This document shows, piece after piece, positions 1 to 64,000 of a DNA stretch of 64,000 bases (within the stretch, counting starts at the first letter, position 1; each line of letters opens with the position of its first letter). The stretch spans positions 15,852,063 through 15,916,062 of the forward strand of contig NC_133063.1 of assembly GCF_048771995.1 (NCBI RefSeq), in the 5' to 3' direction. The DNA comes from Taeniopygia guttata (lineage: Eukaryota; Chordata; Aves; Passeriformes; Estrildidae). Made by a program: the position numbers and the translations under genes. Under the pieces are notes generated by a model. The model worked only from the letters and a program-made list of their open reading frames with translations, ran no database searches and had not been told where the DNA came from.

Positions 1-450
1 GGCCTGAGCACAGGAAAGGGTCTGGTGATTAAGTCTGATGAGGAGCAGCTGAGGGAGCTGGAGGGGCTGAGAATGGAGAAGAGGAGGCTCAGGGGGGCTT
101 TCTTGTTCTCTACAACTCCCTGACAGAAGTGTGGAGCCACACCCCAGGTGGGGGTCAGGCTCTGCTCCCAGGAAACAAGGGAGAGGACAAGAGGAAATGG
201 CCTCAACTTCTGTCAGGGGGGGGCTTAGATTGGGTATTAAGGACAAATTTCTCCTCTGAAAAGGTTGTTAAGAGTTGTCATGGCTGCCCGTGGAATTAAT
301 GATATTGTCATGTCTGGAGACTCTTATGGAATGTGTGGATGTGGCACCTGGGGACATGGTTTCAAAGTCGACATGTCAATGTCAGGTTTCTGGGTGGACT
401 CTCTACAATCTTAGAGATCTTTTTCAACCTAAACAAGTCCATACTACTGC
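1..450 (+). mobile_element. CR1 LINE 3' end, unit 1
   Basis: This matches the 3' part of avian CR1 as I know it: the gaggagcagctgaggg and gaagaggaggctcagg stretch that encodes the ORF2 C-terminus, the gacaagaggaaatggcctca stretch, the gatgtggcacctggggac segment, and the tail atcttagagatctttttcaa. It is 5'-truncated, as CR1 copies usually are, and probably begins shortly before the unit boundary. Family recognition is from memory. Confidence 0.8.
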
Positions 451-480
451 GATGGGAAGCCACTTTTAACCCAAGGAGTA

Positions 481-766
481 TTTGGTAATGTCATTTCATA
501 AAGTCATTAAAAGGAACTTCACTCTAGTGCTCGAACTTATGCAGCTGCTTTTCTCTTTACTCTCCTCATCTTCACTTCTACCTTCAGCCTCGGGACAGGA
601 GAATTGGCTTTGGTGGGACCAGTGGTAGTGGGAAAGCCTCATGCCAGGGGGTTGTAGGTTGGTTTATTTCTGCCAAGGTTGGAGCTGCATCCAGAAAACG
701 CTGTGATCCCTCCAGTCCTTATTGACACTCTTTGACTGCTCTGAGGTGAGTTGCAGGCCTCAAGAG
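481..766. other. Unrecognised spacer upstream of fragment A
   Basis: This lies between the CR1 tail and fragment A and recurs in every unit. It has a pyrimidine-rich stretch ending ttcagcctcgg near 590, which resembles a splice acceptor but has no partner I can identify. No family was recognised. Confidence 0.4.
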
Positions 767-1150
767 ATGTTGGTCAACCTGAGATGTCTGCAGCTTTTCT
801 GCCGTCTTCTGCTGGGCACAGGCTTTTCCACCTACACCCTGAAGACCATCGTCATGCATCTCCTGAACGGTCTCCCCGTGTCACAATGGCGCAGGAAGTA
901 TTTCTTGCAGCGCATGCGAGATATCAGTGTGAACCTGCGCTGCTCTCTGGAGGAGAAATGCCTTAACCACTTTATCATAGGCAACAAGAGATTGCCTCAG
1001 GAGATTAGCTTGCCCCTGGACATTGCAGCAGCTGAGCCACCCAATCTCTTCCATCAGCTGGCACGGTGTCCAGCTGCCCACTCTCAGGCGATGAGCGAGT
1101 ACCAGGATGTTCGGCGTCAGCTCGCAAGTGTGCTGCTCAATGGCTGCTGA
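767..1150 (+). pseudogene. ITPRIPL1-like 3' fragment A, unit 1
   Basis: An open frame of 127 codons from ATG to TGA. After a few unrelated residues it matches the intact gene B from residue 398 (LRCLQLFCRLL) to the end. The A/B nucleotide match starts at about 777 (B 7501) and continues past the stop to 1482 (B 8210), so it includes a shared 3' flank. It lacks the signal region, transmembrane segment and NTase core, and no promoter like that of gene B lies upstream, so I call it a truncated copy. It differs from B by T instead of N in GFSTYT, V in QDVRRQ, and a C-terminus LLNGC instead of LLIGS. Unlike gene B it has an AATAAA at 1326-1331. Translation from the ATG is not shown. Confidence 0.8.
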
Positions 1151-1493
1151 AAGAGGTGATCATGCGTACAGCTGTGCTTGTGGGCTTCACAGGCAGTAGC
1201 AGAAAACCACCTCACGTCCCCGAGGAAAAGAGAGGGGAACGTGGGATACAGAAAGAGAAGATATAAAGCTTCTGCGCAGCAGCACTCTGCCATCAGCAGC
1301 AGCAACAGTGTTGTTATGAACAAAAAATAAAAATTTAAACTTTTGGGCAATGTTGTTAACAATGTCTGTATAAAAAGGGTTGTTGTTGATACAAGTAACA
1401 AGTTATAATTGGATAAGTAGTTAACAGGCTGTGGTGCAGGCTTGGATGTTGCGGCTACAAAGTAAGGTGATTAGTTGTATTAGAGATCAATAC

Positions 1494-1974
1494 TGTTGTA
1501 TACACCTGAAAGGGGACTGGAACCAGGGAGGAAATGCCAATCTTTGTGGAGGGGGGGCAGAGAAGCTTCTAGAAGTATAACATCGTAGAGCACAGCCACA
1601 GCTTGGATTAAGACTGGAGGAGAGACCAGCCAATAAGAAGCAAGAATCTCAAAATGATTGCACCAGCTTATGGGCCAATCAGCAACAGAAAAAGAAACCG
1701 ATCACAGCACGGATCCTGAGCGCCCCAGTAAGGGAAGAAGAGAGAGACTTTAAAAGGCCTGGGGTGTGTGACACCCAGGTCTTTGCTTGGAGCTGGTATC
1801 CTTAGAAATGCCCCTAGGTGTACAATTACTAAATTGTTGAAACAGTCTCCAGACTAGCTGGAGGCTTTGGCTTCCAGTTGTTCTGTCTGTAATAAACAGG
1901 CTTACTTGTTTGTAATTAACTGGCCTGCTTTTTTTTGTTACTTTGAAGTTTTTGTTGTAAGCCTGTCCATAACA
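1494..1974 (+). mobile_element. LTR-like relic 1, unit 1 (fossil)
   Basis: Probable solo LTR of an avian endogenous retrovirus. It has a TG start and CA end, a CCAAT-type motif (gggccaatcagc), a TATA-like ctttaaaagg, and an AATAAA (gtaataaacagg) followed by a T-rich stretch. I found no convincing target-site duplication, so the ends are approximate. No coding parts lie next to it. Confidence 0.5.
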
Positions 1975-2639
1975 GGGTTGTCTTGGCAGTCTCCCCAGCA
2001 CAGCATCCAGAGATGACTACCGTGTGGAGGCCCAGAGAAGCTGACTTCCATTGCAGGGCGGATTGTGGTGATGGACTCCCCTTGCCCCTGGCTGCACTAC
2101 AATCTGAGAAACCCTCATTAGGCCTAAGCCTTGACAAACTCCATTTATATTAAGCTCCTTTTGAATGTATCAGAAACATTATTTGTTCCCAGGAACTAAC
2201 AGGTGTCTAATTAGCGCAATTTTTTTTTCTTTTTTTTTTAATGAACAGCCTTGGAAAATTATTTTTCTTTGCTGATTTATTTTTCTTTGCTGACTTTTTT
2301 TGACTAAGAACCCAAGTGGAATAATATTCTTGTTGACAAACCTTCAAACAAAGTTACAGAGAAAAGACCTGAATGATGGAACAGTCCTATGACTAAATCC
2401 CACTCTGTTGCAACTGTAAAGTGTCCAAAGGGAGACCTTTTGAGCTCTTGATTCTCAGAATATAAGGGAGCAATGAGTGAGTCTCTAACATTGATAATTG
2501 TATGGCAGTGGAGCCAACCAGGAACTGTTGGTAATAGCCAAGGACTGCTGGTATTAAAATGCTGTGAGAAAGACCAAGATATGGCTGGAGAAGGGGGGCC
2601 AGGCGGAAACAGGGCAGCACTTTTCAGTGAGAAAGAGCC
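1975..2639. other. Unrecognised spacer with T-rich run
   Basis: There is no gene or family I recognise here. It holds a T-rich run at about 2220-2240 whose length varies between units, and a short direct repeat of tttttctttgctga near 2260-2295. It may be internal remains of the flanking LTR-type element, but nothing in it proves that. Equivalent stretches follow LTR-like relic 1 in every unit. Confidence 0.35.
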
Positions 2640-3225
2640 ACAGCACAGTACAGCATAAGCACAAGAATAAGGCCAAGAAGAGAGCGTGGACTATAGAGTA
2701 GGATTAAGACCCTCAAAAAGCACCAAAGCCCTCTGCCCCATGTCCAGGAAGGCCTGAAAGAAAAGACTGTACATGGTAATTAATTGACATAGAAAGTGGG
2801 AAACCTGTGTTTAGGGCAGAGAAACCTGTCGATAAAAAGGTAACCCCCAAGCCTGGAAAGTGCCCTCAGGACCCTGGACATCTCATAGACCAGACCAGCA
2901 CAGCTGGATTGATGCTGAACTCAGGATTATTGCCGGGATTGGCACTGCAGCCAGGATTGACATTCCATTAACTGGATCAACACTGGAACCAGGACGGGTG
3001 TTCTTTTTTTGTCTCTCTTTTCTTCTTTGTCTTTTTCTTTCTCTCTTTCTTTAATTCATCTCTCCCTCTTTTTCTTCTCTTCCCTTTAACCCTACCCCTT
3101 TATCCACAACCCACTGCCTTGTGCTCATGTCAGGGGACTAACATATTGATTTCCAAGCCCAGTGTGTAGTTAGGTAATAAAGTTTTCTGATTGTGGACCC
3201 CCTGACTTTTGTTACTCATTTGTGT
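2640..3225 (+). mobile_element. LTR-like relic 2, unit 1 (fossil)
   Basis: Possible retroviral LTR. It has a TATA-like gataaaaagg near 2831, a long pyrimidine tract at about 3003-3110, and AATAAA at 3176-3181 followed by ttttctgattgtggacccc, a layout like the R-U5 part of some avian ERV LTRs. The outer ends are uncertain. Confidence 0.4.
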
Positions 3226-4039
3226 CGCAAATCTTCAGCGCTTCCTTCCCCTTAAGCATGGGTCGTCACACTTCAGCGGCTACGAAGATGGCTTTCATCC
3301 CCCTTTCCTCTAACACTGTCACAGCCAGGGTGACCATTTTAGATGGACCCAGAAATTCTTGCTGGCAGCTGCAGCTGGTCAGGGACCGTGCAAGAGGCAT
3401 CGCTAAGATTCCTCCTTGTGTTCACTGGGGTCTGTATGGAGGAGCTACCCATCCTTAGACACTGCCTGGGCAAAATCTGACACAGACCCGAGCATGCAGG
3501 ACATGGAGAAGGCACTGCTCAATCAGCAGGGGGAATTGCTGCCACACCTTTCCTCTAGAGTAAAAGCACACTTGGACACTGTCTGCCATCCCTTTTGTGA
3601 GACAATCTATTCCCTCTGTGAGCTTCACTCGGTCTCTAAGGGATCACTGAGCCAGGATGATCACACTGGTGGATAATGCTCTAAGGAATGAAAGGAAATC
3701 TCTTGATCAGTCACACAAAGTCATACTCATGGTGCACCTCAACTTCTTAGCTGCAAATGGAGACATCATAGGGAAGAGCTGAACAAGCCCAGAAAATTCT
3801 GGAAGTACACACTGAAAGTAGCTTTTTGACATGAGTACTGTGGGAGCCAACTAGGAAAAGTGCCCTCCTAGACCTGGAGTTTGTCTGTAGAGATGTTCTT
3901 GTGGGTGAAGTGGTGATTGATGCTGTCTTGGGCACAGTAATCAAGAAGTGCTTGAGTAAAAAAAATCTTAGGTGTTATGGAAAAAACTGTCCGCAGAGCT
4001 ACTCCCAAGGGTTGTAGGAGAGCAAGCTCAGGAACTAAT
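3226..4039. other. Unrecognised 0.8-kb spacer, possible element interior
   Basis: This lies between LTR-like relics 2 and 3 in every unit. Only short open stretches are present and I recognise no domain. Its position between two LTR-like segments makes decayed retroelement interior plausible but unproven. Confidence 0.35.
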
Positions 4040-4610: not shown

Positions 4611-5748
4611 GGGGGTGTTTAGCAGAGAGAAAAAGCGCCTCAGAGGGACCTTACAGTTCCCTACAGCTCCCTGAAGGGAGGTTGTAGCCGGGTGGGGATT
4701 GATTTCTTCTCCCAGGTGTGGCAGGGCATCTCATTCTGCTCAAGAGCTGATCTGTGGTTTGTTACCTGGACAGGTAATTCAAACAGGAATAACAGTCTTG
4801 CAGTGAATTCTTTTGCCACTGTGGGGCTAACAGTGGGCTGGCATCTCCCAGCTGCCAAGAAACATCTTACTGTTAAAGTGAGAGCTGGAAAGACAAGCTG
4901 GATTTCTCACTGACAGGCACCTCACTTTATAACTCTAAAAAGCCATACCAAACTTTCACAAAGCAGAAATTTTCTATACATTTCTCTGGAAATGTGTGGT
5001 GTTTCTCTTGTGGACAAGGACACTTGTTTTGCAATTACTGCTGAGGAGGTTAAGTGAAAGACATCCAAATAATTATCATCATCATCACTGTGGTGTGTAA
5101 GATTTGACTCCTGTTTCTTTGACAAGCTTTCCTATAGATACCTTCATGTTGTACATTGTTTGTTATGGTTTAATCTACGTCTAGTACCTTTTAGTTTTAT
5201 ACTGAGTAGTAAGTAACTCCGAGATCTTTCATCTATTATCTCTTGTTTATTTAATAAATAATTCATTTTATAAATAGATTTGATCTTTAGAACTTGCGGG
5301 CCAGAGTGATTTCTTAAACATGAACTGTTGACAAAATCTTTGGCTAACAATGGGCATGTCTGAACATCCCACTTGTCCAGTGACACAAGGAAACAAGCAA
5401 TAAGAACAAGGAAAATGACCTCACGTTGCATCAGATATAGATGTTTAGGTTGGATTTTAGAAAAACTGCTTTCATCAAAAGTACTATCAAGTGTGGAAAG
5501 TGGCTGCCTAGGGAAATAGCTGAGTCCCCACTCTTGAAGGGATTGAAAAGGCATGGAATATTTGAGGACTCAATTTCTTAAAGGAGTAGGCAGTGTTAGG
5601 TTCGCGGTCCCACTGTGGGATCTTCAGGGACTTTTTCAACCACTCTGATTCTGAGATTTGAGTGTAGCTCAACCCGTGAGGAGTCAAAGCTTAGACTCAA
5701 TGATCCTCAAGGGCGCCTTCCAACAGGGATATCTATGAGATTGTGAGT
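4611..5748 (+). mobile_element. CR1 LINE 3' end split by 671-bp insertion, unit 1
   Basis: CR1 sequence runs from gggggtgtttagc to ttcttctcccagg (4611-4716) and resumes at aaacaagcaataagaac (5391) through gatgtttaggttgg and ggctgcctagggaaa to the tail ctctgattctgagat near 5658. Between them lies a 671-bp insertion (4717-5387) that begins TGTGG, ends GACACA and is flanked by agg on both sides. A second, short CR1-type tail (gactcaatgatcctcaag to about 5748) follows and probably belongs to another CR1 subfamily. The intact gene's promoter begins about 170 bp further on. Confidence 0.7.
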
Positions 5749-5918
5749 GGAAGGCAGATGAAAATAAATCCAAAAGAGAGAACAATGGGAGTTATTTGAA
5801 GAAGCTTCCCTCAAAAGCAGCCTTAAGCAGTGCACCAGGGCCTTTCTGAGTTCCTGAGGGAGGAGTTGGCTGAGGGGACAAAGGGTGGGGTTGGCTGGTC
5901 TGTGATGCGCTCTGGCAC

Positions 5919-6311
5919 CTGTGACATCACAGGGGACGTGTCACAGAGGGGGAAGCAATAAAAGGCCCCAGCAGGTTAACGCTGGCCCTCTATTGCTTGG
6001 GCAAGCGGTGAGTACACACACGGCGGGGAGGCTGGGCTGGGGACAAGGGCTGGGGCAGAAACGCTGCAACCGGGGCTGGCTTCTCCCCCTGCAGGCAGGG
6101 ACAGCCCCTCATGGGAGAGCCTTGGGCAGGCCACAGGGCTGCTGCTGCTGCTGCAGCTCCAGGGGCACTGGGATAGCCCTTGCTGCCTGCCAGCTGTCTG
6201 GGGCCCTGTCCTTCCTGCACCCAGAACCCTGAGCATCCTGTCCTCCCTGCAGCAAGCAGTAGTTCCCGCCCTCCCTTCCCCACTCAAGGCCTTCTCTCCC
6301 TCCTCCTGCAG
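5919..6311 (+). promoter_or_regulatory. Promoter, exon 1 and 5'-UTR intron of gene B, unit 1
   Basis: A perfect inverted repeat CTGTGACA / TGTCACAG (5919-5926 and 5939-5946) contains CRE-like TGACATCA. It is followed by the TATA-like aataaaagg at 5957-5965, which predicts a start near 5988. A short first exon would end at 6007 before a strong donor, GTGAGT (6008). The likely acceptor is cctcctgcag, ending at 6311 three bases before the Kozak-like ATG. Weaker acceptors end at 6094 and 6252. The intron holds (CTG)5 at 6139-6153. This gene model is inferred from signals only. Confidence 0.65.
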
Positions 6312-6314
6312 ACC

Positions 6315-7874
6315 ATGGATCCAGTCGTGTTCCTGTTCGCGCTCTTGCAAGGTCTCATCCAGTACCCGCCGCCCGTGGGTGATGGTTTGGATGAGGAAAC
6401 ACATTGGCGCATGGAAGCGCGTGCAAAGTACTTGGAATGGGAGAGGCTTCGGCTGGAGCAGCAGGTGGAGCAGCTCTCCCAGAAGAAGATGCCACACTTG
6501 CAGCTCTTAGCTGTTGCTGTGCTCCTGGCCCTGGTCTTGGTGCTGTGGATTATTGGGTGGAAAAGCAGCCTGAGGAGAGAGGAGAATGAAGAAGAAAACC
6601 ATGGTGCAAATGAAGAGGAAGTTGGCAATGTTGCTGGAAATGAAGATGACAATGATGGAAATGATGTTGTCAATGGGGCTGCACTTGCAGAAAACAACAA
6701 TGACAATGATGTTGCAAATGTAGTCCAAGAAGAAGAAGACAATGTTGACGATCGTGTTGGACAAGATATAATGGAGCGCATAGAGGGGCCTGTAGAGGAC
6801 CTGCAGAGAGTCTGTGAGTGGATAACTGACCTGATGGACGATTATACAATTTACTTTGGGCATGTCTTGTTTGACAGTTTCTACCCAGTCCTGCACCGAC
6901 CCATCGGGGTGGGCAGTGCCTTTGAAGGTTGGAGTCCCTGGGAGCAGGATGTCGTGTACCGTGTGCTCATACCCATGACTCCTCCCCGAGGCCACAGCTT
7001 CCACCTGGAGCTGGACGGTGAGGGGCAGAGGCACGTGAGGAACTTCCGTGTCCGCGTGCAGCTGGAGTGCACCTGCACGAGGCAGCAGCAGGGTGAGAAC
7101 ATGCTGTGCTTCCTGCACAACCCCGAGGAGGAGCTGAGGAGCAATCAGGATCCCAGCCTCCTAGACACCCTGTGCACCGACTCCTACCTGGACGTGCAGA
7201 AAACTGCCCGCTGGTTCCAGCAACTGGTGAAAGCAATCATGCCACCTTTGCCTCAGTTACAAAACCGGAATTTAATCCCGCTGCCCTCCACACACTCCTG
7301 CCAATTCAAGGCGATCAGTGGCGGAGAAAGCTTCAGGATTGAGATCCTGTTCGGGGTGCGGAGAGGTGGCTCTGACATATTCGTGAGCAGCCAGCCTAGG
7401 GAAACACGCACCCCGAGCACTCTATGGCCTGAGACTTATGCTGTGGCAGAGGTGAAGTTCTTCATGCACATTGCCAGGAAGGCCCCCCCCGACAGTTTGC
7501 ACCTGAGATGTCTGCAGCTTTTCTGCTGCCTTCTGCTGGGCACAGGCTTTTCCAACTACACCCTGAAGACCATCGTCATGCATCTCCTGAACGGTCTCCC
7601 CGTGTCACAATGGCGCAGGAAGTATTTCTTGCAGCGCATGCGAGATATCAGTGTGAACCTGCGCTGCTCTCTGGAGGAGAAATGCCTTAACCACTTTATC
7701 ATAGGCAACAAGAGATTGCCTCAGGAGATTAGCTTGCCCCTGGACATTGCAGCAGCTGAGCCACCCAATCTCTTCCATCAGCTGGCACGGTGTCCAGCTG
7801 CCCACTCTCAGGCGATGAGCGAGTACCAGGATATTCGGCGTCAGCTCGCAAGTGTGCTGCTCATTGGCTCATGA
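6315..7874 (+). CDS. ITPRIPL1: ITPRIPL1-like membrane protein (gene B), unit 1
   Basis: 519 residues in one coding exon; human ITPRIPL1 is similar in length (about 555). The start is the first ATG after the acceptor, in an ACCATGG context. Seen in order: a hydrophobic N-terminus (about 3-16, possible signal peptide), a charged helical stretch (about 27-58), one transmembrane segment (about 62-82), an acidic Asn/Asp-rich linker (about 88-148), and a Mab-21-type domain (about 165-510). The domain has IGVGSAFEGW (197-206), QDVVYRVLIP (211-220), LDVQKTARWF (292-301), HFIIGNKRLP (460-469) and LFHQLARCPAAHSQA (486-500), all with close counterparts in human ITPRIPL1. The family is known for IP3-receptor-interacting relatives, and human ITPRIPL1 has been reported as a CD3-epsilon ligand on cell surfaces. 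The function of this amplified avian form is not shown. The unit 1 copy alone has C405, and shares V357 with unit 5. Confidence 0.93.
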   Translation: MDPVVFLFALLQGLIQYPPPVGDGLDEETHWRMEARAKYLEWERLRLEQQVEQLSQKKMPHLQLLAVAVLLALVLVLWIIGWKSSLRREENEEENHGANEEEVGNVAGNEDDNDGNDVVNGAALAENNNDNDVANVVQEEEDNVDDRVGQDIMERIEGPVEDLQRVCEWITDLMDDYTIYFGHVLFDSFYPVLHRPIGVGSAFEGWSPWEQDVVYRVLIPMTPPRGHSFHLELDGEGQRHVRNFRVRVQLECTCTRQQQGENMLCFLHNPEEELRSNQDPSLLDTLCTDSYLDVQKTARWFQQLVKAIMPPLPQLQNRNLIPLPSTHSCQFKAISGGESFRIEILFGVRRGGSDIFVSSQPRETRTPSTLWPETYAVAEVKFFMHIARKAPPDSLHLRCLQLFCCLLLGTGFSNYTLKTIVMHLLNGLPVSQWRRKYFLQRMRDISVNLRCSLEEKCLNHFIIGNKRLPQEISLPLDIAAAEPPNLFHQLARCPAAHSQAMSEYQDIRRQLASVLLIGS

Positions 7875-8210
7875 AAGAGGTGATCATGCGTACAGCTGTG
7901 CTTGTGGGCTTCACAGGCAGTAGCAGAAAACTACCTCACGTCCCCGAGGAAAAGAGAGGGGAAGGAACGTGGGATACAGAAAGAGAAGATATAAAGCTTC
8001 TGCGCAGCAGCACTCTGCCATCAGCAGCAGCAACAGTGTTGTTATGAACAAAAAAAGCAAATTTAAACTTTTGGGCAATGTTGTTAACAATGTCTGTATA
8101 AAAAGGGTTGTTGTTGATACAAGTAACAAGTTATAATTGGATAAGTAGTTAACAGGCTGAGGTGCAGGCTTGGATGTTGTGGCTACAAAGTAAGGTGATT
8201 AGTTGTATTA
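7875..8210 (+). other. 3' flank of gene B, shared with fragment A
   Basis: This sequence after the gene B stop matches the sequence after the fragment A stop up to agttgtatta. It differs by a ggaa insertion near 7962 and by aaaaaaagcaaattt where most A copies have an AATAAA. No canonical polyadenylation hexamer was seen here. The nearest downstream AATAAA on this strand that I noticed is at 9704-9709, followed by a GT-rich stretch. The same holds in all five units. Confidence 0.6.
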
Positions 8211-8649
8211 CGCTGTGGCAGAGGCTGAGTTCTTCAAGTACATTGCCAGGCAGGCCCCCCCTGACAGCTCGCACCTCAAATGCCTTTAGTTCTTCTCCCA
8301 TCTTGTTCTGGGCTTCAGCTTCTCCACCTACACCATGAAGACCATTGTCATGCACCTGCTCATTGCCATGCCCGTGTCATCGTGGAGCAGGGGACATCTC
8401 CGGGAGCGACTGACGGATATCAGGGACAGCCTGCATATATGTTTGTGACAAAAATGCCTCCAGCACTTCATTGTGGGTAACCGGAGGTTTCCTCAGGACA
8501 TCAATTTACCCCCAGATGTAAGAATGGGTAGGACATACAGTCTCTTCCATCACCTGGCGCAGCAGCCGGCTGCCCACACCCAGGCAATGCGGGATTACTG
8601 GGTGCTGCACAAGACGTTCAAAAGGATCGCTCTCGGAGAGGATGACTGA
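8211..8649 (+). pseudogene. Decayed ITPRIPL1-like 3' fragment C, unit 1
   Basis: This begins abruptly at cgctgtggcagagg, equivalent to about residue 375 of gene B, and runs to the original TGA. The encoded pieces (AEAEFFKYIARQAPPDSSHLKC, split as AEAEFFKYIARQ and APPDSSHLKC; STYTMKTIVMHLL; QHFIVGNRRFPQ; LFHHLAQQPAAH) are clearly related to gene B but much more diverged than fragment A, so it comes from an older paralogue. An in-frame TGA after LHICL occurs in every unit. Unit 1 alone also has a TAG at 8287-8289 where the others have CAG. The sequence to about 8750 resembles the gene B 3' flank at low identity. Confidence 0.8.
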
Positions 8650-10759: not shown

Positions 10760-11365
10760 AGACCTACCCTGACTCAGGTGCAGCACCTCATACTTGATCT
10801 TTTTAAACCACATGAGACTGCTATGGTTCCACTCCTCAAGCACATCACATCTCTTTAGTAGTCATTCCATTCTTCAGGTGTGTCAGCTGCTGCTTGGTGA
10901 CATCAGCAAACCTGCTGAGGATACCTCTGTGTACAGGATTAATGAAGATATTAATAGACATTGCTCAGAGAACAGAACTTTGAGGTCCATCCTGACTCTT
11001 AGCTGTTGATCTCTGGAAGCACCATGCATGCAATTTCTTATCCATCCAACAGTCCAGGCACCAAATCCACCTCTCTCAAATTTAGGGAGAATGTTTTGGG
11101 GATCATGTCAAAGGCTTTACGGTAGTCCAGATAAACGACACCTGTAGCCTTCCCCTTGTCCCTTCATGTACTCGATCCATCATTGAAGGCCACTGCGTAG
11201 GTCGGGCAAGACTCACCCTCGGCTGTCCCAAATCACCTCCCTGTTCTCCATGTGCCTTAGCATAGCTTCAAGGAGGATGTGTTCCGTGATCTTCCGAGGC
11301 ACTGACATGAGGCTGATGGGTTGGTCATTTCCAGAGTGTTCCTTCCTACCCTTTTTTAGAATGGG
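10760..11365 (-). mobile_element. CR1 LINE reverse-transcriptase fragment, unit 1
   Basis: On the minus strand the pieces read TPILKKGRKEHSGNDQPISL, then LLEAMLRHMENREVI (about 11220-11265), YLDYRKAFD (about 11108-11134) and, in other frames, NIFIN and LSRFADVTK. These match the CR1 ORF2 order TPIFKKG, LRHMEN, YLDFSKAFD and LSKFADDTK. Frame changes and stops show the LINE fragment is dead. It is cut at 11365 by the next LTR-like relic. Confidence 0.85.
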
Positions 11366-18497: not shown

Positions 18498-20057
18498 ATG
18501 GATCCAGTCGTGTTCCTGTTCGCGCTCTTGCAAGGTCTCATCCAGTACCCGCCGCCCGTGGGTGATGGTTTGGATGAGGAAACACATTGGCGCATGGAAG
18601 CGCGTGCAAAGTACTTGGAATGGGAGAGGCTTCGGCTGGAGCAGCAGGTGGAGCAGCTCTCCCAGAAGAAGATGCCACACTTGCAGCTCTTAGCTGTTGC
18701 TGTGCTCCTGGCCCTGGTCTTGGTGCTGTGGATTATTGGGTGGAAAAGCAGCCTGAGGAGAGAGGAGAATGAAGAAGAAAACCATGGTGCAAATGAAGAG
18801 GAAGTTGGCAATGTTGCTGGAAATGAAGATGACAATGATGGAAATGATGTTGTCAATGGGGCTGCACTTGCAGAAAACAACAATGACAATGATGTTGCAA
18901 ATGTAGTCCAAGAAGAAGAAGACAGTGTTGACGATCGTGTTGGACAAGATATAATGGAGCGCATAGAGGGGCCTGTAGAGGACCTGCAGAGAGTCTGTGA
19001 GTGGATAACTGACCTGATGGACGATTATACAATTTACTTTGGGCATGTCTTGTTTGACAGTTTCTACCCAGTCCTGCACCGACCCATCGGGGTGGGCAGT
19101 GCCTTTGAAGGTTGGAGTCCCTGGGAGCAGGATGTCGTGTACCGTGTGCTCATACCCATGACTCCTCCCCGAGGCCACAGCTTCCACCTGGAGCTGGACG
19201 GTGAGGGGCAGAGGCACGTGAGGAACTTCCGTGTCCGCGTGCAGCTGGAGTGCACCTGCACGAGGCAGCAGCAGGGTGAGAACATGCTGTGCTTCCTGCA
19301 CAACCCCGAGGAGGAGCTGAGGAGCAATCAGGATCCCAGCCTCCTAGACACCCTGTGCACCGACTCCTACCTGGACGTGCAGAAAACTGCCCGCTGGTTC
19401 CAGCAACTGGTGAAAGCAATCATGCCACCTTTGCCTCAGTTACAAAACCGGAATTTAATCCCACTGCCCTCCACACACTCCTGCCAATTCAAGGCGATCA
19501 GTGGCGGAGAAAGCTTCAGGATTGAGATCCTGTTGGGGGTGCGGAGAGGTGGCTCTGACATATTCGCGAGCAGCCAGCCTAGGGAAACACGCACCCCAAG
19601 CACTCTATGGCCTGAGACTTATGCTGTGGCAGAGGTGAAGTTCTTCATGCACATTGCCAGGAAGGCCCCCCCCGACAGTTTGCACCTGAGATGTCTGCAG
19701 CTTTTCTGCCGCCTTCTGCTGGGCACAGGCTTTTCCAACTACACCCTGAAGACCATCGTCATGCATCTCCTGAACGGTCTCCCCGTGTCACAATGGTGCA
19801 GGAAGTATTTCTTGCAGCGCATGCGAGATATCAGTGTGAACCTGCGCTGCTCTCTGGAGGAGAAATGCCTTAACCACTTTATCATAGGCAACAAGAGATT
19901 GCCTCAGGAGATTAGCTTGCCCCTGGACATTGCAGCAGCTGAGCCACCCAATCTCTTCCATCAGCTGGCACGGTGTCCAGCTGCCCACTCTCAGGCGATG
20001 AGCGAGTACCAGGATATTCGGCGTCAGCTCGCAAGTGTGCTGCTCATTGGCTCATGA
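18498..20057 (+). CDS. ITPRIPL1: ITPRIPL1-like membrane protein (gene B), unit 2
   Basis: Second intact 519-residue copy with the domain order of the unit 1 protein. Private residues are S143 in the acidic linker, L346 in the ILLGVRRGG strand and C434 (SQWCRK). The R434-to-C change falls in a stretch that is constant in all other B and A copies, so this may be the least constrained intact copy in the window. No stop or frameshift is present, and promoter and splice signals are kept. Confidence 0.92.
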   Translation: MDPVVFLFALLQGLIQYPPPVGDGLDEETHWRMEARAKYLEWERLRLEQQVEQLSQKKMPHLQLLAVAVLLALVLVLWIIGWKSSLRREENEEENHGANEEEVGNVAGNEDDNDGNDVVNGAALAENNNDNDVANVVQEEEDSVDDRVGQDIMERIEGPVEDLQRVCEWITDLMDDYTIYFGHVLFDSFYPVLHRPIGVGSAFEGWSPWEQDVVYRVLIPMTPPRGHSFHLELDGEGQRHVRNFRVRVQLECTCTRQQQGENMLCFLHNPEEELRSNQDPSLLDTLCTDSYLDVQKTARWFQQLVKAIMPPLPQLQNRNLIPLPSTHSCQFKAISGGESFRIEILLGVRRGGSDIFASSQPRETRTPSTLWPETYAVAEVKFFMHIARKAPPDSLHLRCLQLFCRLLLGTGFSNYTLKTIVMHLLNGLPVSQWCRKYFLQRMRDISVNLRCSLEEKCLNHFIIGNKRLPQEISLPLDIAAAEPPNLFHQLARCPAAHSQAMSEYQDIRRQLASVLLIGS

Positions 20058-30678: not shown

Positions 30679-32238
30679 ATGGATCCAGTCGTGTTCCTGT
30701 TCGCGCTCTTGCAAGGTCTCATCCAGTACCCGCCGCCCGTGGGTGATGGTTTGGATGAGGAAACACATTGGCGCATGGAAGCGCGTGCAAAGTACTTGGA
30801 ATGGGAGAGGCTTCGGCTGGAGCAGCAGGTGGAGCAGCTCTCCCAGAAGAAGATGCCACACTTGCAGCTCTTAGCTGTTGCTGTGCTCCTGGCCCTGGTC
30901 TTGGTGCTGTGGATTATTGGGTGGAAAAGCAGCCTGAGGAGAGAGGAGAATGAAGAAGAAAACCATGGTGCAAATGAAGAGGAAGTTGGCAATGTTGCTG
31001 GAAATGAAGATGACAATGATGGAAATGATGTTGTCAATGGGGCTGCACTTGCAGAAAACAACAATGACAATGATGTTGCAAATGTAGTCCAAGAAGAAGA
31101 AGACAATGTTGACGATCGTGTTGGACAAGATATAATGGAGCGCATAGAGGGGCCTGTAGAGGACCTGCAGAGAGTCTGTGAGTGGATAACTGACCTGATG
31201 GACGATTATACAATTTACTTTGGGCATGTCTTGTTTGACAGTTTCTACCCAGTCCTGCACCGACCCATCGGGGTGGGCAGTGCCTTTGAAGGTTGGAGTC
31301 CCTGGGAGCAGGATGTCGTGTACCGTGTGCTCATACCCATGACTCCTCCCCGAGGCCACAGCTTCCACCTGGAGCTGGACGGTGAGGGGCAGAGGCACGT
31401 GAGGAACTTCCGTGTCCGCGTGCAGCTGGAGTGCACCTGCACGAGGCAGCAGCAGGGTGAGAACATGCTGTGCTTCCTGCACAACCCCGAGGAGGAGCTG
31501 AGGAGCAATCAGGATCCCAGCCTCCTAGACACCCTGTGCACCGACTCCTACCTGGACGTGCAGAAAACTGCCCGCTGGTTCCAGCAACTGGTGAAAGCAA
31601 TCATGCCACCTTTGCCTCAGTTACAAAACCGGAATTTAATCCCGCTGCCCTCCACACACTCCTGCCAATTCAAGGCGATCAGTGGCGGAGAAAGCTTCAG
31701 GATTGAGATCCTGTTCGGGGTGCGGAGAGGTGGCTCTGACATATTCGCGAGCAGCCAGCCTAGGGAAACACGCACCCCAAGCACTCTATGGCCTGAGACT
31801 TATGCTGTGGCAGAGGTGAAGTTCTTCATGCACATTGCCAGGAAGGCCCCCCCCGACAGTTTGCACCTGAGATGTCTGCAGCTTTTCTGCCGCCTTCTGC
31901 TGGGCACAGGCTTTTCCAACTACACCCTGAAGACCATCGTCATGCATCTCCTGAACGGTCTCCCCGTGTCACAATGGCGCAGGAAGTATTTCTTGCAGCG
32001 CATGCGAGATATCAGTGTGAACCTGCGCTGCTCTCTGGAGGAGAAATGCCTTAACCACTTTATCATAGGCAACAAGAGATTGCCTCAGGAGATTAGCTTG
32101 CCCCTGGACATTGCAGCAGCTGAGCCACCCAATCTCTTCCATCAGCTGGCACGGTGTCCAGCTGCCCACTCTCAGGCGATGAGCGAGTACCAGGATATTC
32201 GGCGTCAGCTCGCAAGTGTGCTGCTCATTGGCTCATGA
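30679..32238 (+). CDS. ITPRIPL1: ITPRIPL1-like membrane protein (gene B), unit 3
   Basis: Third intact copy, 519 residues. At every variable site it has the commonest or a shared residue (T29, N143, P159, F346, A357, R405, N414, R434, Q499), so it is the best local stand-in for the array consensus. It differs from the unit 1 protein at only two residues (357 and 405). Confidence 0.93.
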   Translation: MDPVVFLFALLQGLIQYPPPVGDGLDEETHWRMEARAKYLEWERLRLEQQVEQLSQKKMPHLQLLAVAVLLALVLVLWIIGWKSSLRREENEEENHGANEEEVGNVAGNEDDNDGNDVVNGAALAENNNDNDVANVVQEEEDNVDDRVGQDIMERIEGPVEDLQRVCEWITDLMDDYTIYFGHVLFDSFYPVLHRPIGVGSAFEGWSPWEQDVVYRVLIPMTPPRGHSFHLELDGEGQRHVRNFRVRVQLECTCTRQQQGENMLCFLHNPEEELRSNQDPSLLDTLCTDSYLDVQKTARWFQQLVKAIMPPLPQLQNRNLIPLPSTHSCQFKAISGGESFRIEILFGVRRGGSDIFASSQPRETRTPSTLWPETYAVAEVKFFMHIARKAPPDSLHLRCLQLFCRLLLGTGFSNYTLKTIVMHLLNGLPVSQWRRKYFLQRMRDISVNLRCSLEEKCLNHFIIGNKRLPQEISLPLDIAAAEPPNLFHQLARCPAAHSQAMSEYQDIRRQLASVLLIGS

Positions 32239-42861: not shown

Positions 42862-44421
42862 ATGGATCCAGTCGTGTTCCTGTTCGCGCTCTTGCAAGGT
42901 CTCATCCAGTACCCGCCGCCCGTGGGTGATGGTTTGGATGAGGAAGCACATTGGCGCATGGAAGCGCGTGCAAAGTACTTGGAATGGGAGAGGCTTCGGC
43001 TGGAGCAGCAGGTGGAGCAGCTCTCCCAGAAGAAGATGCCACACTTGCAGCTCTTAGCTGTTGCTGTGCTCCTGGCCCTGGTCTTGGTGCTGTGGATTAT
43101 TGGGTGGAAAAGCAGCCTGAGGAGAGAGGAGAATGAAGAAGAAAACCATGGTGCAAATGAAGAGGAAGTTGGCAATGTTGCTGGAAATGAAGATGACAAT
43201 GATGGAAATGATGTTGTCAATGGGGCTGCACTTGCAGAAAACAACAATGACAATGATGTTGCAAATGTAGTCCAAGAAGAAGAAGACAATGTTGACGATC
43301 GTGTTGGACAAGATATAATGGAGCGCATAGAGGGGCCTGTAGAGGACCTGCAGAGAGTCTGTGAGTGGATAACTGACCTGATGGACGATTATACAATTTA
43401 CTTTGGGCATGTCTTGTTTGACAGTTTCTACCCAGTCCTGCACCGACCCATCGGGGTGGGCAGTGCCTTTGAAGGTTGGAGTCCCTGGGAGCAGGATGTC
43501 GTGTACCGTGTGCTCATACCCATGACTCCTCCCCGAGGCCACAGCTTCCACCTGGAGCTGGACGGTGAGGGGCAGAGGCACGTGAGGAACTTCCGTGTCC
43601 GCGTGCAGCTGGAGTGCACCTGCACGAGGCAGCAGCAGGGTGAGAACATGCTGTGCTTCCTGCACAACCCCGAGGAGGAGCTGAGGAGCAATCAGGATCC
43701 CAGCCTCCTAGACACCCTGTGCACCGACTCCTACCTGGACGTGCAGAAAACTGCCCGCTGGTTCCAGCAACTGGTGAAAGCAATCATGCCACCTTTGCCT
43801 CAGTTACAAAACCGGAATTTAATCCCGCTGCCTTCCACACACTCCTGCCAATTCAAGGCGATCAGTGGCGGAGAAAGCTTCAGGATTGAGATCCTGTTCG
43901 GGGTGCGGAGAGGTGGCTCTGACATATTCGCGAGCAGCCAGCCTAGGGAAACACGCACCCCAAGCACTCTATGGCCTGAGACTTATGCTGTGGCAGAGGT
44001 GAAGTTCTTCATGCACATTGCCAGGAAGGCCCCCCCCGACAGTTTGCACCTGAGATGTCTGCAGCTTTTCTGCCGCCTTCTGCTGGGCACAGGCTTTTCC
44101 ACCTACACCCTGAAGACCATCGTCATGCATCTCCTGAACGGTCTCCCCGTGTCACAATGGCGCAGGAAGTATTTCTTGCAGCGCATGCGAGATATCAGTG
44201 TGAACCTGCGCTGCTCTCTGGAGGAGAAATGCCTTAACCACTTTATCATAGGCAACAAGAGATTGCCTCAGGAGATTAGCTTGCCCCTGGACATTGCAGC
44301 AGCTGAGCCACCCAATCTCTTCCATCAGCTGGCACGGTGTCCAGCTGCCCACTCTCGGGCGATGAGCGAGTACCAGGATATTCGGCGTCAGCTCGCAAGT
44401 GTGCTGCTCATTGGCTCATGA
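42862..44421 (+). CDS. ITPRIPL1: ITPRIPL1-like membrane protein (gene B), unit 4
   Basis: Fourth intact copy, 519 residues. It has A29 (shared with unit 5), T414 and R499. T414 (GFSTYT) is the residue found in all fragment A copies and in no other gene B here, which suggests a short conversion tract from a fragment A. R499 also occurs in fragment A of units 2 and 6. Domains and start are as in unit 1. Confidence 0.93.
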   Translation: MDPVVFLFALLQGLIQYPPPVGDGLDEEAHWRMEARAKYLEWERLRLEQQVEQLSQKKMPHLQLLAVAVLLALVLVLWIIGWKSSLRREENEEENHGANEEEVGNVAGNEDDNDGNDVVNGAALAENNNDNDVANVVQEEEDNVDDRVGQDIMERIEGPVEDLQRVCEWITDLMDDYTIYFGHVLFDSFYPVLHRPIGVGSAFEGWSPWEQDVVYRVLIPMTPPRGHSFHLELDGEGQRHVRNFRVRVQLECTCTRQQQGENMLCFLHNPEEELRSNQDPSLLDTLCTDSYLDVQKTARWFQQLVKAIMPPLPQLQNRNLIPLPSTHSCQFKAISGGESFRIEILFGVRRGGSDIFASSQPRETRTPSTLWPETYAVAEVKFFMHIARKAPPDSLHLRCLQLFCRLLLGTGFSTYTLKTIVMHLLNGLPVSQWRRKYFLQRMRDISVNLRCSLEEKCLNHFIIGNKRLPQEISLPLDIAAAEPPNLFHQLARCPAAHSRAMSEYQDIRRQLASVLLIGS

Positions 44422-55041: not shown

Positions 55042-56601
55042 ATGGATCCAGTCGTGTTCCTGTTCGCGCTCTTGCAAGGTCTCATCCAGTACCCGCCGCC
55101 CGTGGGTGATGGTTTGGATGAGGAAGCACATTGGCGCATGGAAGCGCGTGCAAAGTACTTGGAATGGGAGAGGCTTCGGCTGGAGCAGCAGGTGGAGCAG
55201 CTCTCCCAGAAGAAGATGCCACACTTGCAGCTCTTAGCTGTTGCTGTGCTCCTGGCCCTGGTCTTGGTGCTGTGGATTATTGGGTGGAAAAGCAGCCTGA
55301 GGAGAGAGGAGAATGAAGAAGAAAACCATGGTGCAAATGAAGAGGAAGTTGGCAATGTTGCTGGAAATGAAGATGACAATGATGGAAATGATGTTGTCAA
55401 TGGGGCTGCACTTGCAGAAAACAACAATGACAATGATGTTGCAAATGTAGTCCAAGAAGAAGAAGACAATGTTGACGATCGTGTTGGACAAGATATAATG
55501 GAGCGCATAGAGGGGACTGTAGAGGACCTGCAGAGAGTCTGTGAGTGGATAACTGACCTGATGGACGATTATACAATTTACTTTGGGCATGTCTTGTTTG
55601 ACAGTTTCTACCCAGTCCTGCACCGACCCATCGGGGTGGGCAGTGCCTTTGAAGGTTGGAGTCCCTGGGAGCAGGATGTCGTGTACCGTGTGCTCATACC
55701 CATGACTCCTCCCCGAGGCCACAGCTTCCACCTGGAGCTGGACGGTGAGGGGCAGAGGCACGTGAGGAACTTCCGTGTCCGCGTGCAGCTGGAGTGCACC
55801 TGCACGAGGCAGCAGCAGGGTGAGAACATGCTGTGCTTCCTGCACAACCCCGAGGAAGAGCTGAGGAGCAATCAGGATCCCAGCCTCCTAGACACCCTGT
55901 GCACCGACTCCTACCTGGACGTGCAGAAAACTGCCCGCTGGTTCCAGCAACTGGTGAAAGCAATCATGCCACCTTTGCCTCAGTTACAAAACCGGAATTT
56001 AATCCCGCTGCCCTCCACACACTCCTGCCAATTCAAGGCGATCAGTGGCGGAGAAAGCTTCAGGATTGAGATCCTGTTCGGGGTGCGGAGAGGTGGCTCT
56101 GACATATTCGTGAGCAGCCAGCCTAGGGAAACACGCACCCCAAGCACTCTATGGCCTGAGACTTATGCTGTGGCAGAGGTGAAGTTCTTCATGCACATTG
56201 CCAGGAAGGCCCCCCCCGACAGTTTGCACCTGAGATGTCTGCAGCTTTTCTGCCGCCTTCTGCTGGGCACAGGCTTTTCCAACTACACCCTGAAGACCAT
56301 CGTCATGCATCTCCTGAACGGTCTCCCCGTGTCACAATGGCGCAGGAAGTATTTCTTGCAGCGCATGCGAGATATCAGTGTGAACCTGCGCTGCTCTCTG
56401 GAGGAGAAATGCCTTAACCACTTTATCATAGGCAACAAGAGATTGCCTCAGGAGATTAGCTTGCCCCTGGACATTGCAGCAGCTGAGCCACCCAATCTCT
56501 TCCATCAGCTGGCACGGTGTCCAGCTGCCCACTCTCGGGCGATGAGCGAGTACCAGGATATTCGGCGTCAGCTCGCAAGTGTGCTGCTCATTGGCTCATG
56601 A
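55042..56601 (+). CDS. ITPRIPL1: ITPRIPL1-like membrane protein (gene B), unit 5
   Basis: Fifth intact copy, 519 residues. It has A29 and R499 as in unit 4, V357 as in unit 1, and a private T159 (EGTVED) just before the Mab-21-type domain. The mixture of unit 1-like and unit 4-like residues fits exchange among units. Domains, start and splice signals are as in unit 1. Confidence 0.93.
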   Translation: MDPVVFLFALLQGLIQYPPPVGDGLDEEAHWRMEARAKYLEWERLRLEQQVEQLSQKKMPHLQLLAVAVLLALVLVLWIIGWKSSLRREENEEENHGANEEEVGNVAGNEDDNDGNDVVNGAALAENNNDNDVANVVQEEEDNVDDRVGQDIMERIEGTVEDLQRVCEWITDLMDDYTIYFGHVLFDSFYPVLHRPIGVGSAFEGWSPWEQDVVYRVLIPMTPPRGHSFHLELDGEGQRHVRNFRVRVQLECTCTRQQQGENMLCFLHNPEEELRSNQDPSLLDTLCTDSYLDVQKTARWFQQLVKAIMPPLPQLQNRNLIPLPSTHSCQFKAISGGESFRIEILFGVRRGGSDIFVSSQPRETRTPSTLWPETYAVAEVKFFMHIARKAPPDSLHLRCLQLFCRLLLGTGFSNYTLKTIVMHLLNGLPVSQWRRKYFLQRMRDISVNLRCSLEEKCLNHFIIGNKRLPQEISLPLDIAAAEPPNLFHQLARCPAAHSRAMSEYQDIRRQLASVLLIGS

Positions 56602-61355: not shown

Positions 61356-61671
61356 GATGGGAAGCCACTTTTAACCCAAGGAGTATTTGGTAATGTCATT
61401 TCATAAAGTCATTAAAAGGAACTTCACTCTAGTGCTCGAACTTATGCAGCTGCTTTTCTCTTTACTCTCCTCATCTTCACTTCTACCTTCAGCCTCGGAA
61501 CAGGAGAATTGGCTTTGGTGGGACCAGTGGTAGTGGGAAAGCCTCATGCCAGGGGGTTGTAGGTTGGTTTATTTCTGCCAAGGTTGGAGCTGCATCCAGA
61601 AAACGCTGTGATCCCTCCAGTCCTTATTGACACTCTTTGACTGCTCTGAGGTGAGTTGCAGGCTGCAAGAG

Positions 61672-62055
61672 ATGTTGGTCAACCTGAGATGTCTGCAGCT
61701 TTTCTGCCGCCTTTTGCTGGGCACAGGCTTTTCCACCTACACCCTGAAGACCATCGTCATGCGCCTCCTGAACGGTCTCCCCGTGTCACAATGGCGCAGG
61801 AAGTATTTCTTGCGGCACCTGCGAGATATCAGTGTGAACCTGCGCTGCTCTCTGGAGGAGAAATGCCTTAACCACTTTATCATAGGCAACAAGAGATTGC
61901 CTCAGGAGATTAGCTTGCCCCTGGACATTGCAGCAGCTGAGCCACCCAATCTCTTCCATCAGCTGGCACGGTGTCCAGCTGCCCACTCTCGGGCGATGAG
62001 CGAGTACCAGGATATTCGGCGTCAGCTCGCAAGTGTGCTGCTCAATGGCTGCTGA
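61672..62055 (+). pseudogene. ITPRIPL1-like 3' fragment A, unit 6
   Basis: Copy of fragment A with its frame open. It has the FLRHLRDIS cluster as in unit 5, a private H-to-R change (VMRLLNG), AHSRAM, and QDI, which is the residue typical of gene B. It therefore mixes A-type and B-type variants. AATAAA is present. Shared homology ends at 62387. Confidence 0.8.
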
Positions 62056-62398
62056 AAGAGGTGATCATGCGTACAGCTGTGCTTGTGGGCTTCACAGGCA
62101 GTAGCAGAAAACCACCTCACGTCCCCGAGGAAAAGAGAGGGGAATGTGGGATACAGAAAGAGAAGATATAAAGCTTCTGCGCAGCAGCACTCTGCCATCA
62201 TCAGCAGCTACAGTGTTGTTATGAACAAAAAATAAAAATTTAAACTTTTGGGCAATGTTGTTAACAATGTCTGTATAAAAAGGGTTGTTGTTGATACAAG
62301 TAACAAGTTATAATTGGATAAGTAGTTAACAGGCTGTGGTGCAGGCTTGGATGTTGTGGCTACAAAGTAAGGTGATTAGTTGTATTAGAGATCAATAC

Positions 62399-62879
62399 TG
62401 TTGTATACACCTGAAAGGGGACTGGAACCAGGGAGGAAATGCCAATCTTTGTGGAGGGGGGGCAGAGAAGCTTCTAGAAGTATAATATCATAGAGCACAG
62501 CCACAGCTTGGATTAAGACTGGAGGAGAGACCAGCCAATAAGAAGCAAGAATCTCAAAATGATTGCACCAGCTTATGGGCCAATCAGCAACAGAAAGAGA
62601 AACCGATCACAGCACGGATCCTGAGCGCCCCAGTAAGGGAAGAAGAGAGAGACTTTAAAAGGCCTGGGGTGTGTGACACCCAGGTCTTTGCTTGGAGCTG
62701 GTATCCTTAGAAATGCCCCTAGGTGTACAATTACTAAATTGTTGAAACAGTCTCCAGACTAGCTGGAGGCTTTGGCTTCCAGTTGTTCTGTCTGTAATAA
62801 ACAGGCTTACTTGTTTGTAATTAACTGGCCTGCTTTTTTTTGTTACTTTGAAGTTTTCGTTGTAAGCCTGTCCATAACA
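62399..62879 (+). mobile_element. LTR-like relic 1, unit 6 (fossil)
   Basis: Copy of the LTR-like segment at 1494-1974, at the same place in the unit. Confidence 0.5.
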
Positions 62880-63543
62880 GGGTTGTCTTGGCAGTCTCCC
62901 CAGCACAGCATCCAGAGATGACTACCGTGTGGAGGCCCAGAGAAGCTGACTTCCATTGCAGGGCGGATTGTGGTGATGGACTCCCCTTGCCCCTGGCTGC
63001 ACTACAATCTGAGAAACCCTCATTAGGCCTAAGCCTTGACAAACTCCATTTATATTAAGCTCCTTTTGAATGTATCAGAAACATTATTTGTTCCCAGGAA
63101 CTAACAGGTGTCTAATTAGCGCAATTTTTTTTCTTTTTTTTTTAATGAACAGCCTTGGAAAATTATTTTTCTTTGCTGATTTATTTTTCTTTGCTGACTT
63201 TTTTTGACTAAGAACCCAAGTGGAATAATATTCTTGTTGACAAACCTTCAAACAAAGTTACAGAGAAAAGACCTGAATGATGGAACATTCCTATGACTAA
63301 ATCCCACTCTGTTGCAACTGTAAAGTGTCCAAAGGGAGACCTTTTGAGCTCTTGATTCTCAGAATATAAGGGAGCAATGAGTGAGTCTCTAACATTGATA
63401 ATTGTATGGCAGTGGAGCCAACCAGGAACTGTTGGTAATAGCCAAGGACTGCTGGTATTAAAATGCTGTGAGAAAGACCAAGATATGGCTGGAGAAGGGG
63501 GGCCAGGCGGAAATAGGGCAGCACTTTTCAGTGAGAAAGAGCC

Positions 63544-64000
63544 ACAGCACAGTACAGCATAAGCACAAGAATAAGGCCAAGAAGAGAGCGTGGACTATAG
63601 AGTAGGATTAAGACCCTCAAAAAGCACCAAAGCCCTCTGCCCCATGTCCAGGAAGGCCTGAAAGAAAAGACTGTACATGGTAATTAATTGACATAGAAAG
63701 TGGGAAACCTGTGTTTAGGGCAGAGAAACCTGTCGATAAAAAGGTAACCCCCAAGCCTGGAAAGTGCCCTCAGGACCCTGGACATCTCATAGACCAGACC
63801 AGCACAGCTGGATTGATGCTGAACTCAGGATTATTGCCGGGATTGGCACTGCAGCCAGGATTGACATTCCATTAACTGGATCGACACTGGAACCAGGACG
63901 GGTGTTCTTTTTTTGTCTCTCTTTTCTTCTTTGTCTTTTTCTTTCTCTCTTTCTTTAATTCATCTCTCCCTCTTTTTCTTCTCTTCCCTTTAACCCTACC
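63544..64000 (+). mobile_element. LTR-like relic 2, unit 6, cut by window end (fossil)
   Basis: Left part of the same LTR-like segment. The window ends in its pyrimidine tract. Confidence 0.4.

What the first reader, a model, noticed from the sequence alone, without database searches (positions are those of the whole stretch)
1..64000. A 12.2-kb macrosatellite in which every full unit carries an intact ITPRIPL1-like gene
Five complete units and part of a sixth repeat head to tail at spacings of 12178, 12183, 12181, 12183 and 12180 bp. Each full unit keeps an open 519-codon gene with promoter and splice signals. Tandem arrays of this unit size are usually non-coding or decayed. Here the gene has been kept open while its fragments A and C sit beside it. 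The array leaves the window on both sides, so it could be far larger. A copy-number-dependent dose of a membrane Mab-21 protein, or germline or sex-chromosome amplification, are possible explanations, but they are inference.
Basis: partly seen in the sequence, partly recalled or inferred. Interest (0 to 1): 0.8.

Follow-up and report, generated by a model that had tools for sequence, protein, structure and literature searches.

The report
Amplified chimeric finch gene array
One zebra finch chromosome, very probably the Z sex chromosome, carries 25 near-identical tandem copies of a gene pieced together from two related genes, in two opposed blocks that match a smaller array elsewhere in the genome; gene arrays of this kind are known, but this one shows the steps by which such an array arises.

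Summary
The window is zebra finch, contig C40 (82.2 Mb, very probably chrZ), 15,852,063-15,916,062. It is a true 12.18-kb tandem array, 99.2-99.5% identical. It is bounded: a minus arm with 10 gene copies (15,566,899-15,688,621), an ~84-kb spacer, and a plus arm with 15 (15,772,497-15,949,724). All 25 full copies found are open. The unit is colinear at about 95% with an 11.4-kb unit on contig C7, where 11 gene copies stand. The C40 gene is a chimera: codons 1 to ~300 from one paralogue (C-type), the rest from another (A-type); the displaced C-type 3' end remains as fragment C. Two odd spacings record unequal exchange through the shared A segment. Openness within the array is weak evidence of constraint: variants look near neutral and zero stops has P about 0.26. 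The wider finch family does keep its frame. Gene-bearing macrosatellites, and zebra finch chrZ amplicons with ITPRIPL1-like copies, are already in print. Best reading: a young, probably Z-linked ampliconic array of a chimeric, fast-changing ITPRIPL1-like gene; function unproven.

The parts
1..64000 (+). Part of the plus arm of the array: five full 12.18-kb units and a partial sixth (C40:15852063-15916062)
6315..7874 (+). Gene B, copy 1, 519 codons, chimeric (C-type codons 1 to ~300, A-type to the end)
18498..20057 (+). Gene B, copy 2
30679..32238 (+). Gene B, copy 3
42862..44421 (+). Gene B, copy 4
55042..56601 (+). Gene B, copy 5
5695..6314 (+). Promoter-side flank, probable non-coding first exon and short intron of gene B (TATA-like about 5957, donor after 6007, acceptor to 6311); 5695 is also where array units part from the older 5' flank kept by edge copy L019
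   Evidence: no RNA seen; splice reading inferred
7215..8208 (+). A-type segment of gene B: C-terminal ~220 codons and 3' UTR (start known only to about 100 bases)
777..1482 (+). Fragment A: truncated A-type 3' end, open but without the 5' part; further copies at 12955-13660, 25138-25843, 37319-38024, 49503-50208, 61682-62387
8209..8649 (+). Fragment C: displaced C-type 3' end, with internal stops by reading of the sequence; further copies start near 20392, 32573, 44756, 56936
11288..11289 (.). Unit position at which both ends of the minus arm break off (C40:15566899-15688621, ten units)

Best explanation
This is an ampliconic gene array, very probably of the Z chromosome. Read from the sequence: a unit with an ITPRIPL1-like gene also stands as a tandem array on contig C7 (very probably chromosome 5); the edge gene of the C40 plus arm and its upstream flank, with a piece of a two-pore potassium channel gene, are matched by the flank of the C7 array at 97%; on C40 the gene's 3' end is that of a second paralogue, so the gene is a chimera; the chimera-bearing unit fills two arms in opposite orientation, which carry products of unequal exchange at the repeated 0.7-kb A segment. 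Inferred: that copying went from C7 to C40; that C40 is the Z; that the protein is a single-pass membrane protein with a Mab-21/cGAS-like fold; that it is expressed, most likely in the male gonad or germ line, where copy number would set its dose, as for other sex-linked amplified genes. Whether it acts like its mammalian namesake (a CD3-epsilon ligand, highly expressed in testis) is a guess.
For: Array and bounds. 25 of 25 full copies open, 18 distinct proteins and 23 distinct CDS. Colinearity with the C7 unit: 94.8% over an 11.8-kb alignment, 96.0% over 9.9 kb outside gene B. Chimera: in 100-base bins gene B is 93-100% identical to dispersed copy L026 up to about codon 300 and 56-86% from there to the stop; the N-part groups with zebra finch and Lonchura C-type proteins (supports 0.977, 0.786, 1.0), the C-part with Haemorhous P0036 and Zosterops P0069 (0.868, 0.747). 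Unequal exchange: one gap of 6.73 kb and one of 17.63 kb, both with a junction in the A/B repeat. Arms evolve apart: mean differences per 4.56 kb 8.1 within minus, 16.2 within plus, 18.3 between (24 copies, L019 left out). Edge copy L019 keeps a 5' flank shared with 3 of 5 dispersed C40 copies fetched and with the C7 edge. Fold: the 50 Foldseek rows listed are MiD51, MiD49, cGAS, a cGAS-like receptor and MB21D2 entries, one titled after a Drp1-receptor complex (model weak). Human ITPRIPL1 highly expressed in testis: abstract and passages of PMC13365830. chrZ amplicons with ITPRIP-like and KCNK16-like copies: section 6 of PMC13060935.
Confidence: 0.66

Rival explanations
1. A selectively neutral satellite: the same history, but the gene is a passenger too young to have decayed, with no product that matters. 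(Rival about function; shares the structural history.)
For: Near-neutral variant ratio, no lower diversity in the CDS, chance probability of an intact array about 0.26; 8% departures at conserved sites; the region would fall within the Z inversion block given in an older assembly's coordinates (PMC5043542 passages; Z assignment inferred).
Against: In the wider zebra finch family the frame is kept: 1 stop where about 6.8 are expected (8 sequences, P 0.009) and 3 of 3 coding indels in frame against 0 of 7 (or 1 of 9) nearby non-coding ones (6 sequences). Uncorrected Nei-Gojobori ratios are below 1: 0.57 pooled over array pairs. The only CDS indel seen among array copies is 3 bp.
Confidence: 0.3
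2. Copy-number amplification under positive selection for dose (sexual conflict, sperm competition or testis immune privilege), with adaptive change in the chimeric protein. (A stronger form of the best explanation.)
For: Faster change at conserved sites, omega near 1 with frame kept in the family, amplification on a probable Z, testis expression of human ITPRIPL1 (PMC13365830) and of other zebra finch Z amplicon genes (PMC13060935).
Against: Omega does not significantly exceed 1 in any set tested; no expression or copy-number polymorphism data.
Confidence: 0.3
3. Assembly duplication or mis-joined haplotypes.
For: Highly similar units are prone to assembly error; other Z amplicons of this bird needed model sequences (PMC13060935).
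Against: 23 distinct CDS of 25; arm-specific variation; three adjacent copies sharing a 3-bp deletion; two complementary exchange junctions. The four chrZ gaps named in that paper coincide with PAK3L arrays.
Confidence: 0.04

Closest known systems
Zebra finch chrZ PAK3L ampliconic arrays, cluster 8 (PMC13060935, preprint; section 6 and passages read)
   Same: Same bird, very probably same chromosome; [quoted passage not shown]
   Different: Its resolved arrays are led by PAK3L, with units of median 268 and 59 kb; here the unit is 12.2 kb, its only long ORF is the ITPRIPL1-like gene, the arms are opposed and the gene is a chimera. The parts read do not describe this array
Gene-bearing human macrosatellites and sex-linked arrays: CT47, CT45, GAGE, TSPY, RS447/USP17, D4Z4 (PMC2588610, PMC3599962, passages read)
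   Same: Kilobase-scale head-to-tail units, each with a gene, highly alike, several on X or Y
   Different: Unrelated genes; germline expression (CT47) and copy-number polymorphism are reported there and untested here
Contig C7 (very probably chromosome 5) ITPRIPL1-like array of the same genome
   Same: Colinear unit, same gene family, 11 copies, mostly 11.4 kb apart
   Different: In the copies examined the gene keeps its own C-type 3' end; 1 of 11 copies has a stop
crowSat1, 14-kb crow satellite (PMC6115840, one passage)
   Same: Songbird tandem repeat of similar unit size
   Different: Sequence not held here, so relationship untested; called a suspected heterochromatin component, no gene mentioned in the passage
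Mammalian ITPRIPL1 (CD3L1)
   Same: Name given to the bird proteins in databases; [quoted passage not shown]
   Different: Orthology and CD3 binding untested; in birds a multi-copy family

Membership tests
Macrosatellite | Head-to-tail units of kilobases, high identity, many copies | tested here: met
Macrosatellite | Copy number varies between individuals | not testable with these tools
   one assembly, no reads
Sex-chromosome ampliconic gene array | Lies on a sex chromosome | tested here: inconclusive
   C40 length equals that of the NCBI zebra finch contig, 82,218,670; last but one of 41 contigs; has the ITPRIPL1-like and K2P pair reported for chrZ; the DMRT1 request did not complete
Sex-chromosome ampliconic gene array | Multiple near-identical copies with open frames | tested here: met
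   25 of 25 open
Sex-chromosome ampliconic gene array | Germline or gonad expression | not testable with these tools
   no expression data held
ITPRIPL1-like / Mab-21 family | Homology over full length to proteins annotated ITPRIPL1-like | tested here: met
   694 proteins at E <= 0.001 among 7996 scored, 120 listed, many with 99-100% of the query covered
ITPRIPL1-like / Mab-21 family | Pfam Mab-21 and Mab-21_C above curated cut-off | tested here: not met
   14.9 and 14.3 bits against 24.1 for the array protein; 49 of 51 aligned members match Mab-21_C at E <= 0.01, the array protein not
ITPRIPL1-like / Mab-21 family | Mab-21/cGAS-like nucleotidyltransferase fold | tested here: inconclusive
   Foldseek rows for MiD51 and cGAS at E 9e-8 to 2e-4, but model pLDDT 53.7
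PAK3L cluster 8 amplicon of zebra finch chrZ | PAK3L kinase genes in the unit | tested here: inconclusive
   the window's only ORFs of 250 aa or more are the five ITPRIPL1-like genes; no search for short kinase exons was made

The most novel reading that the evidence does not exclude
A chimeric ITPRIPL1-like gene, made by recombination between two paralogues, was carried from an autosomal array to the Z and amplified as a male-dose gene; its two opposed arms and the dispersed copies in both orientations along the same chromosome (27.5, 63.6, 63.8, 68.8, 76.1, 76.6 Mb) also supply the repeats through which the known polymorphic Z inversions, which affect sperm, arise.
Probability: 0.1. Interest if true: 0.75.

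Novelty: new member of a known kind. Interest (0 to 1): 0.45.

Why it matters
If expressed, this is a clear case in which the steps of ampliconic gene birth can be read in one genome: related array on another chromosome, copied edge, chimera, amplification in two arms, and exchange products still visible. It adds another gene-led amplicon to what is very probably the zebra finch Z, whose inversions are studied for their effect on sperm, and gives copy-specific variants with which to ask whether copy number matters.

Tried and rejected
Considered and set aside: a purely non-coding satellite (25 of 25 open frames); an open-ended array (bounds found); strong constraint on the array gene; fragment A as donor of the whole A-type part of gene B (B carries A-type-like sequence upstream of the point where A begins). 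Codon-model tests: the null was run at kappa fixed to 2.0, which inflated the statistic (six sets, 2.19 to 12.84); four of the six were repeated with kappa profiled (2.50, 1.12, 0.05, 0.38). The other two, codons 1-300 of all copies (4.08) and of the array (2.19), were not repeated. Searches ended in script errors after printing part of their output; what one search printed before that is reported in the full report. In one search two of nine non-coding indel events (111 and 733 bases) were dropped as products of a short slice; with them the contrast is 3 of 3 against 1 of 9. In the same alignment the two C7 entries were one and the same gene. The stop count uses 8 sequences (5 dispersed C40 copies and 3 of 11 C7 copies), those that had been fetched, not a random draw; of those left out, one C7 copy has a TAG and one C40 copy at 76.6 Mb lacks a stretch. 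The genome search scores only the best candidates, so counts are lower bounds. Rfam on 1-12400 and tRNA search of the window gave nothing; PDB by sequence gave nothing for the gene. Literature: ITPRIPL1 with tandem repeat and bird (0 papers), with zebra finch, with birds (title on another gene), 'trisphosphate receptor-interacting protein-like' with birds and copies (on layer hens, listing only); macrosatellite with passerine (only a table count); one search was badly posed and gave nothing of use. The original crow paper and the PAK3-like kinase paper were not held.
Full report
What was checked. The window holds a 12.18-kb head-to-tail array at 99.16-99.53% identity, with an open 519-codon gene per full unit, fragment A upstream and fragment C downstream, as the finding says. 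[quoted passage not shown] The window's own genome has 41 contigs and 1.14 Gb; the window lies on C40, also 82,218,670 bases, at 15,852,063-15,916,062. Contig order (karyotype recalled: 39 autosomes, Z, W) and a preprint that reports ITPRIP-like and KCNK16-like duplicates on the zebra finch chrZ (PMC13060935, section 6) make C40 very probably the Z, and C7 chromosome 5. The direct test, placing DMRT1, did not complete.

Extent. The gene search gave 92 matches in the genome (83 of 196 candidates scored, so a lower bound). Of these 25 are near-identical full copies between 15.57 and 15.95 Mb on C40: 10 on the minus strand and 15 on the plus strand. Flanks fetched and compared with the unit bound a minus arm at 15,566,899-15,688,621, with both ends at unit position 11289 (121.7 kb, ten units), and a plus arm at 15,772,497-15,949,724 (177.2 kb). 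About 84 kb lie between. All 25 copies are open (519 codons in 22, 518 in 3). The two arms total about 299 kb.

Origin. On C7 at 59.98-60.09 Mb there are 11 gene copies, mostly 11.4 kb apart, 10 of them without a stop. One C7 unit is colinear with the C40 unit over an 11.8-kb alignment at 94.8%. Outside gene B the identity is 96.0% over 9.9 kb. The units differ in length by about 0.77 kb, at the gene's 3' end. In bins of 100 bases the C40 gene is 91-100% identical to dispersed copies L026 and L030 up to about codon 300; against L026 it then falls to 86, 82, 80, 74 and 61%. The 3' part is of another type, that of fragment A. In trees from a protein alignment of 51 members the N-part groups with zebra finch and Lonchura proteins (supports 0.977, 0.786 and 1.0) and the C-part with Haemorhous P0036 and Zosterops P0069 (0.868 and 0.747). 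The gene is thus a chimera. Fragment C, which follows it directly, is the C-type 3' end that it lost, and carries stops (by reading). Proteins with either type of C-terminus exist in other songbirds. The first copy of the plus arm, L019, keeps a 5' flank shared with 3 of the 5 dispersed C40 copies fetched and with the edge of the C7 array; upstream of it C40 and the C7 flank are 97% identical over 3.4 kb, with a stretch that matches two-pore potassium channels. So DNA at the edge of one array was copied to the other chromosome. That the direction was C7 to C40 is inferred from the chimera being found only on C40.

Turnover. Two spacings depart from 12.18 kb: 6.73 kb between L019 and the next gene and 17.63 kb between L025 and L001. 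Aligned to the unit, both have a junction inside the 0.7-kb stretch that A and B share, one lacking and one having extra about 5.45 kb, as unequal exchange at that repeat would leave. Three adjacent plus-arm copies (L022-L024) share a 3-bp deletion. Mean differences per 4.56 kb are 8.1 within the minus arm, 16.2 within the plus arm and 18.3 between arms (24 copies, L019 left out).

Is the gene kept by selection? Within the array it is not demonstrated: 25 replacement and 12 silent variants in 25 copies, 27 and 10 expected under a mutation-biased neutral model (P 0.28); no stop in 37 changes has a chance probability of 0.26; the CDS has 21.8 variable sites per kb, the 5' and 3' flanks 14.0 and 19.4 (24 copies). 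A codon model gives omega 0.6 (grid range 0.4-1.0) for the array and 0.9 (0.7-1.2) for C-type copies; with kappa profiled, omega of 1 is not rejected in 4 of 4 sets. Two more sets were tested only at a fixed kappa of 2.0, one of them above the usual threshold (4.08). Simple Nei-Gojobori ratios, which ignore mutation bias, are lower: 0.57 pooled over all array pairs, and 0.57 to 0.72 for codons 1-394 between one array copy and five dispersed copies. The family in this genome keeps its frame: over the C-type tree about 6.8 stops are expected and 1 is seen (8 sequences; P 0.009), and 3 of 3 coding indels are multiples of three against 0 of 7 nearby non-coding ones, or 1 of 9 with two dropped events. 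Across the 51 proteins about 200 positions are over 90% conserved; the array protein departs at 16 of 200, the dispersed C40 type P0002 at 6 of 200, Lonchura P0003 at 3 of 199 (Fisher P 0.046 and 0.004). So the family looks like a real, constrained gene family, and the amplified chimera like its fast-changing offshoot, by relaxation or by adaptation.

What it may do. By inspection the protein has a hydrophobic N-terminus, a charged stretch, one transmembrane-like segment, an acidic linker and a C-terminal domain. Pfam Mab-21 models stay under their cut-offs and the AlphaFold2 model is weak (pLDDT 53.7), but the 50 Foldseek rows listed are MiD51, MiD49, cGAS, a cGAS-like receptor and MB21D2 entries, one of them titled after a Drp1-receptor complex. 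Human ITPRIPL1 is described as a CD3 ligand highly expressed in testis (abstract and passages of PMC13365830). The chrZ preprint says that genes of its amplicons tend to be expressed in testis (PMC13060935, passages). On this basis the most likely role, if any, is in the male gonad, but this is inference.

Known or new. Gene-bearing tandem arrays are well known (PMC2588610 and PMC3599962, passages), and zebra finch chrZ amplicons with ITPRIPL1-like members are in print as a preprint (section 6 of PMC13060935; figure legend). The parts read do not describe this 12.2-kb two-armed array, its chimeric gene or the C7 array; the searches brought no other account. Bird sequence collections at DNA level were not available to me. 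It is rated a new member of a known kind.

A bolder reading. The array arms and the dispersed copies lie in both orientations along C40. The ends of polymorphic Z inversions of this species could not be mapped and were thought to lie in sequence missing from the older assembly, such as repeats (PMC5043542, passages), and the chrZ preprint notes that inversions appear to colocalise with the ampliconic arrays. That these units help to make the inversions is possible and untested.

Noticed in passing
G000:C3:51966069-51992342: Six copies at about 4.96-kb spacing of a distant ITPRIPL1-like frame (49% identity), each with one TAG inside.
   Followed up: no
protein list: Large near-identical ITPRIPL1-like clusters in other songbirds: Agelaius 53 member sequences (73.9-Mb contig), Zonotrichia 35 (74.5 Mb), Haemorhous 21 (77.2 Mb); pigeon proteins with consecutive locus tags. 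Repeated amplification is suggested.
   Followed up: partly
L032:7359-8051 and 3598-4056 (minus strand): Stretches like exons of a two-pore potassium channel beside the plus arm. A 76-residue piece of the first matches such channels in the PDB and lies in DNA 97% identical to the C7 array flank; the second was judged by eye.
   Followed up: partly
L031:5200-5980 and L037:3100-3430: Minisatellite-like repeats in the spacer between the two arms, seen as repetitive reading frames.
   Followed up: no
G000:C7:60023298-60036123: One spacing of 12.8 kb among the 11.4-kb spacings of the C7 array.
   Followed up: no
window 1326 against 7875-8374: Fragment A keeps an AATAAA; no AATAAA or ATTAAA lies within 500 bp after the gene's stop in 25 of 25 array copies, so a transcript, if any, may end beyond fragment C.
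   Followed up: partly
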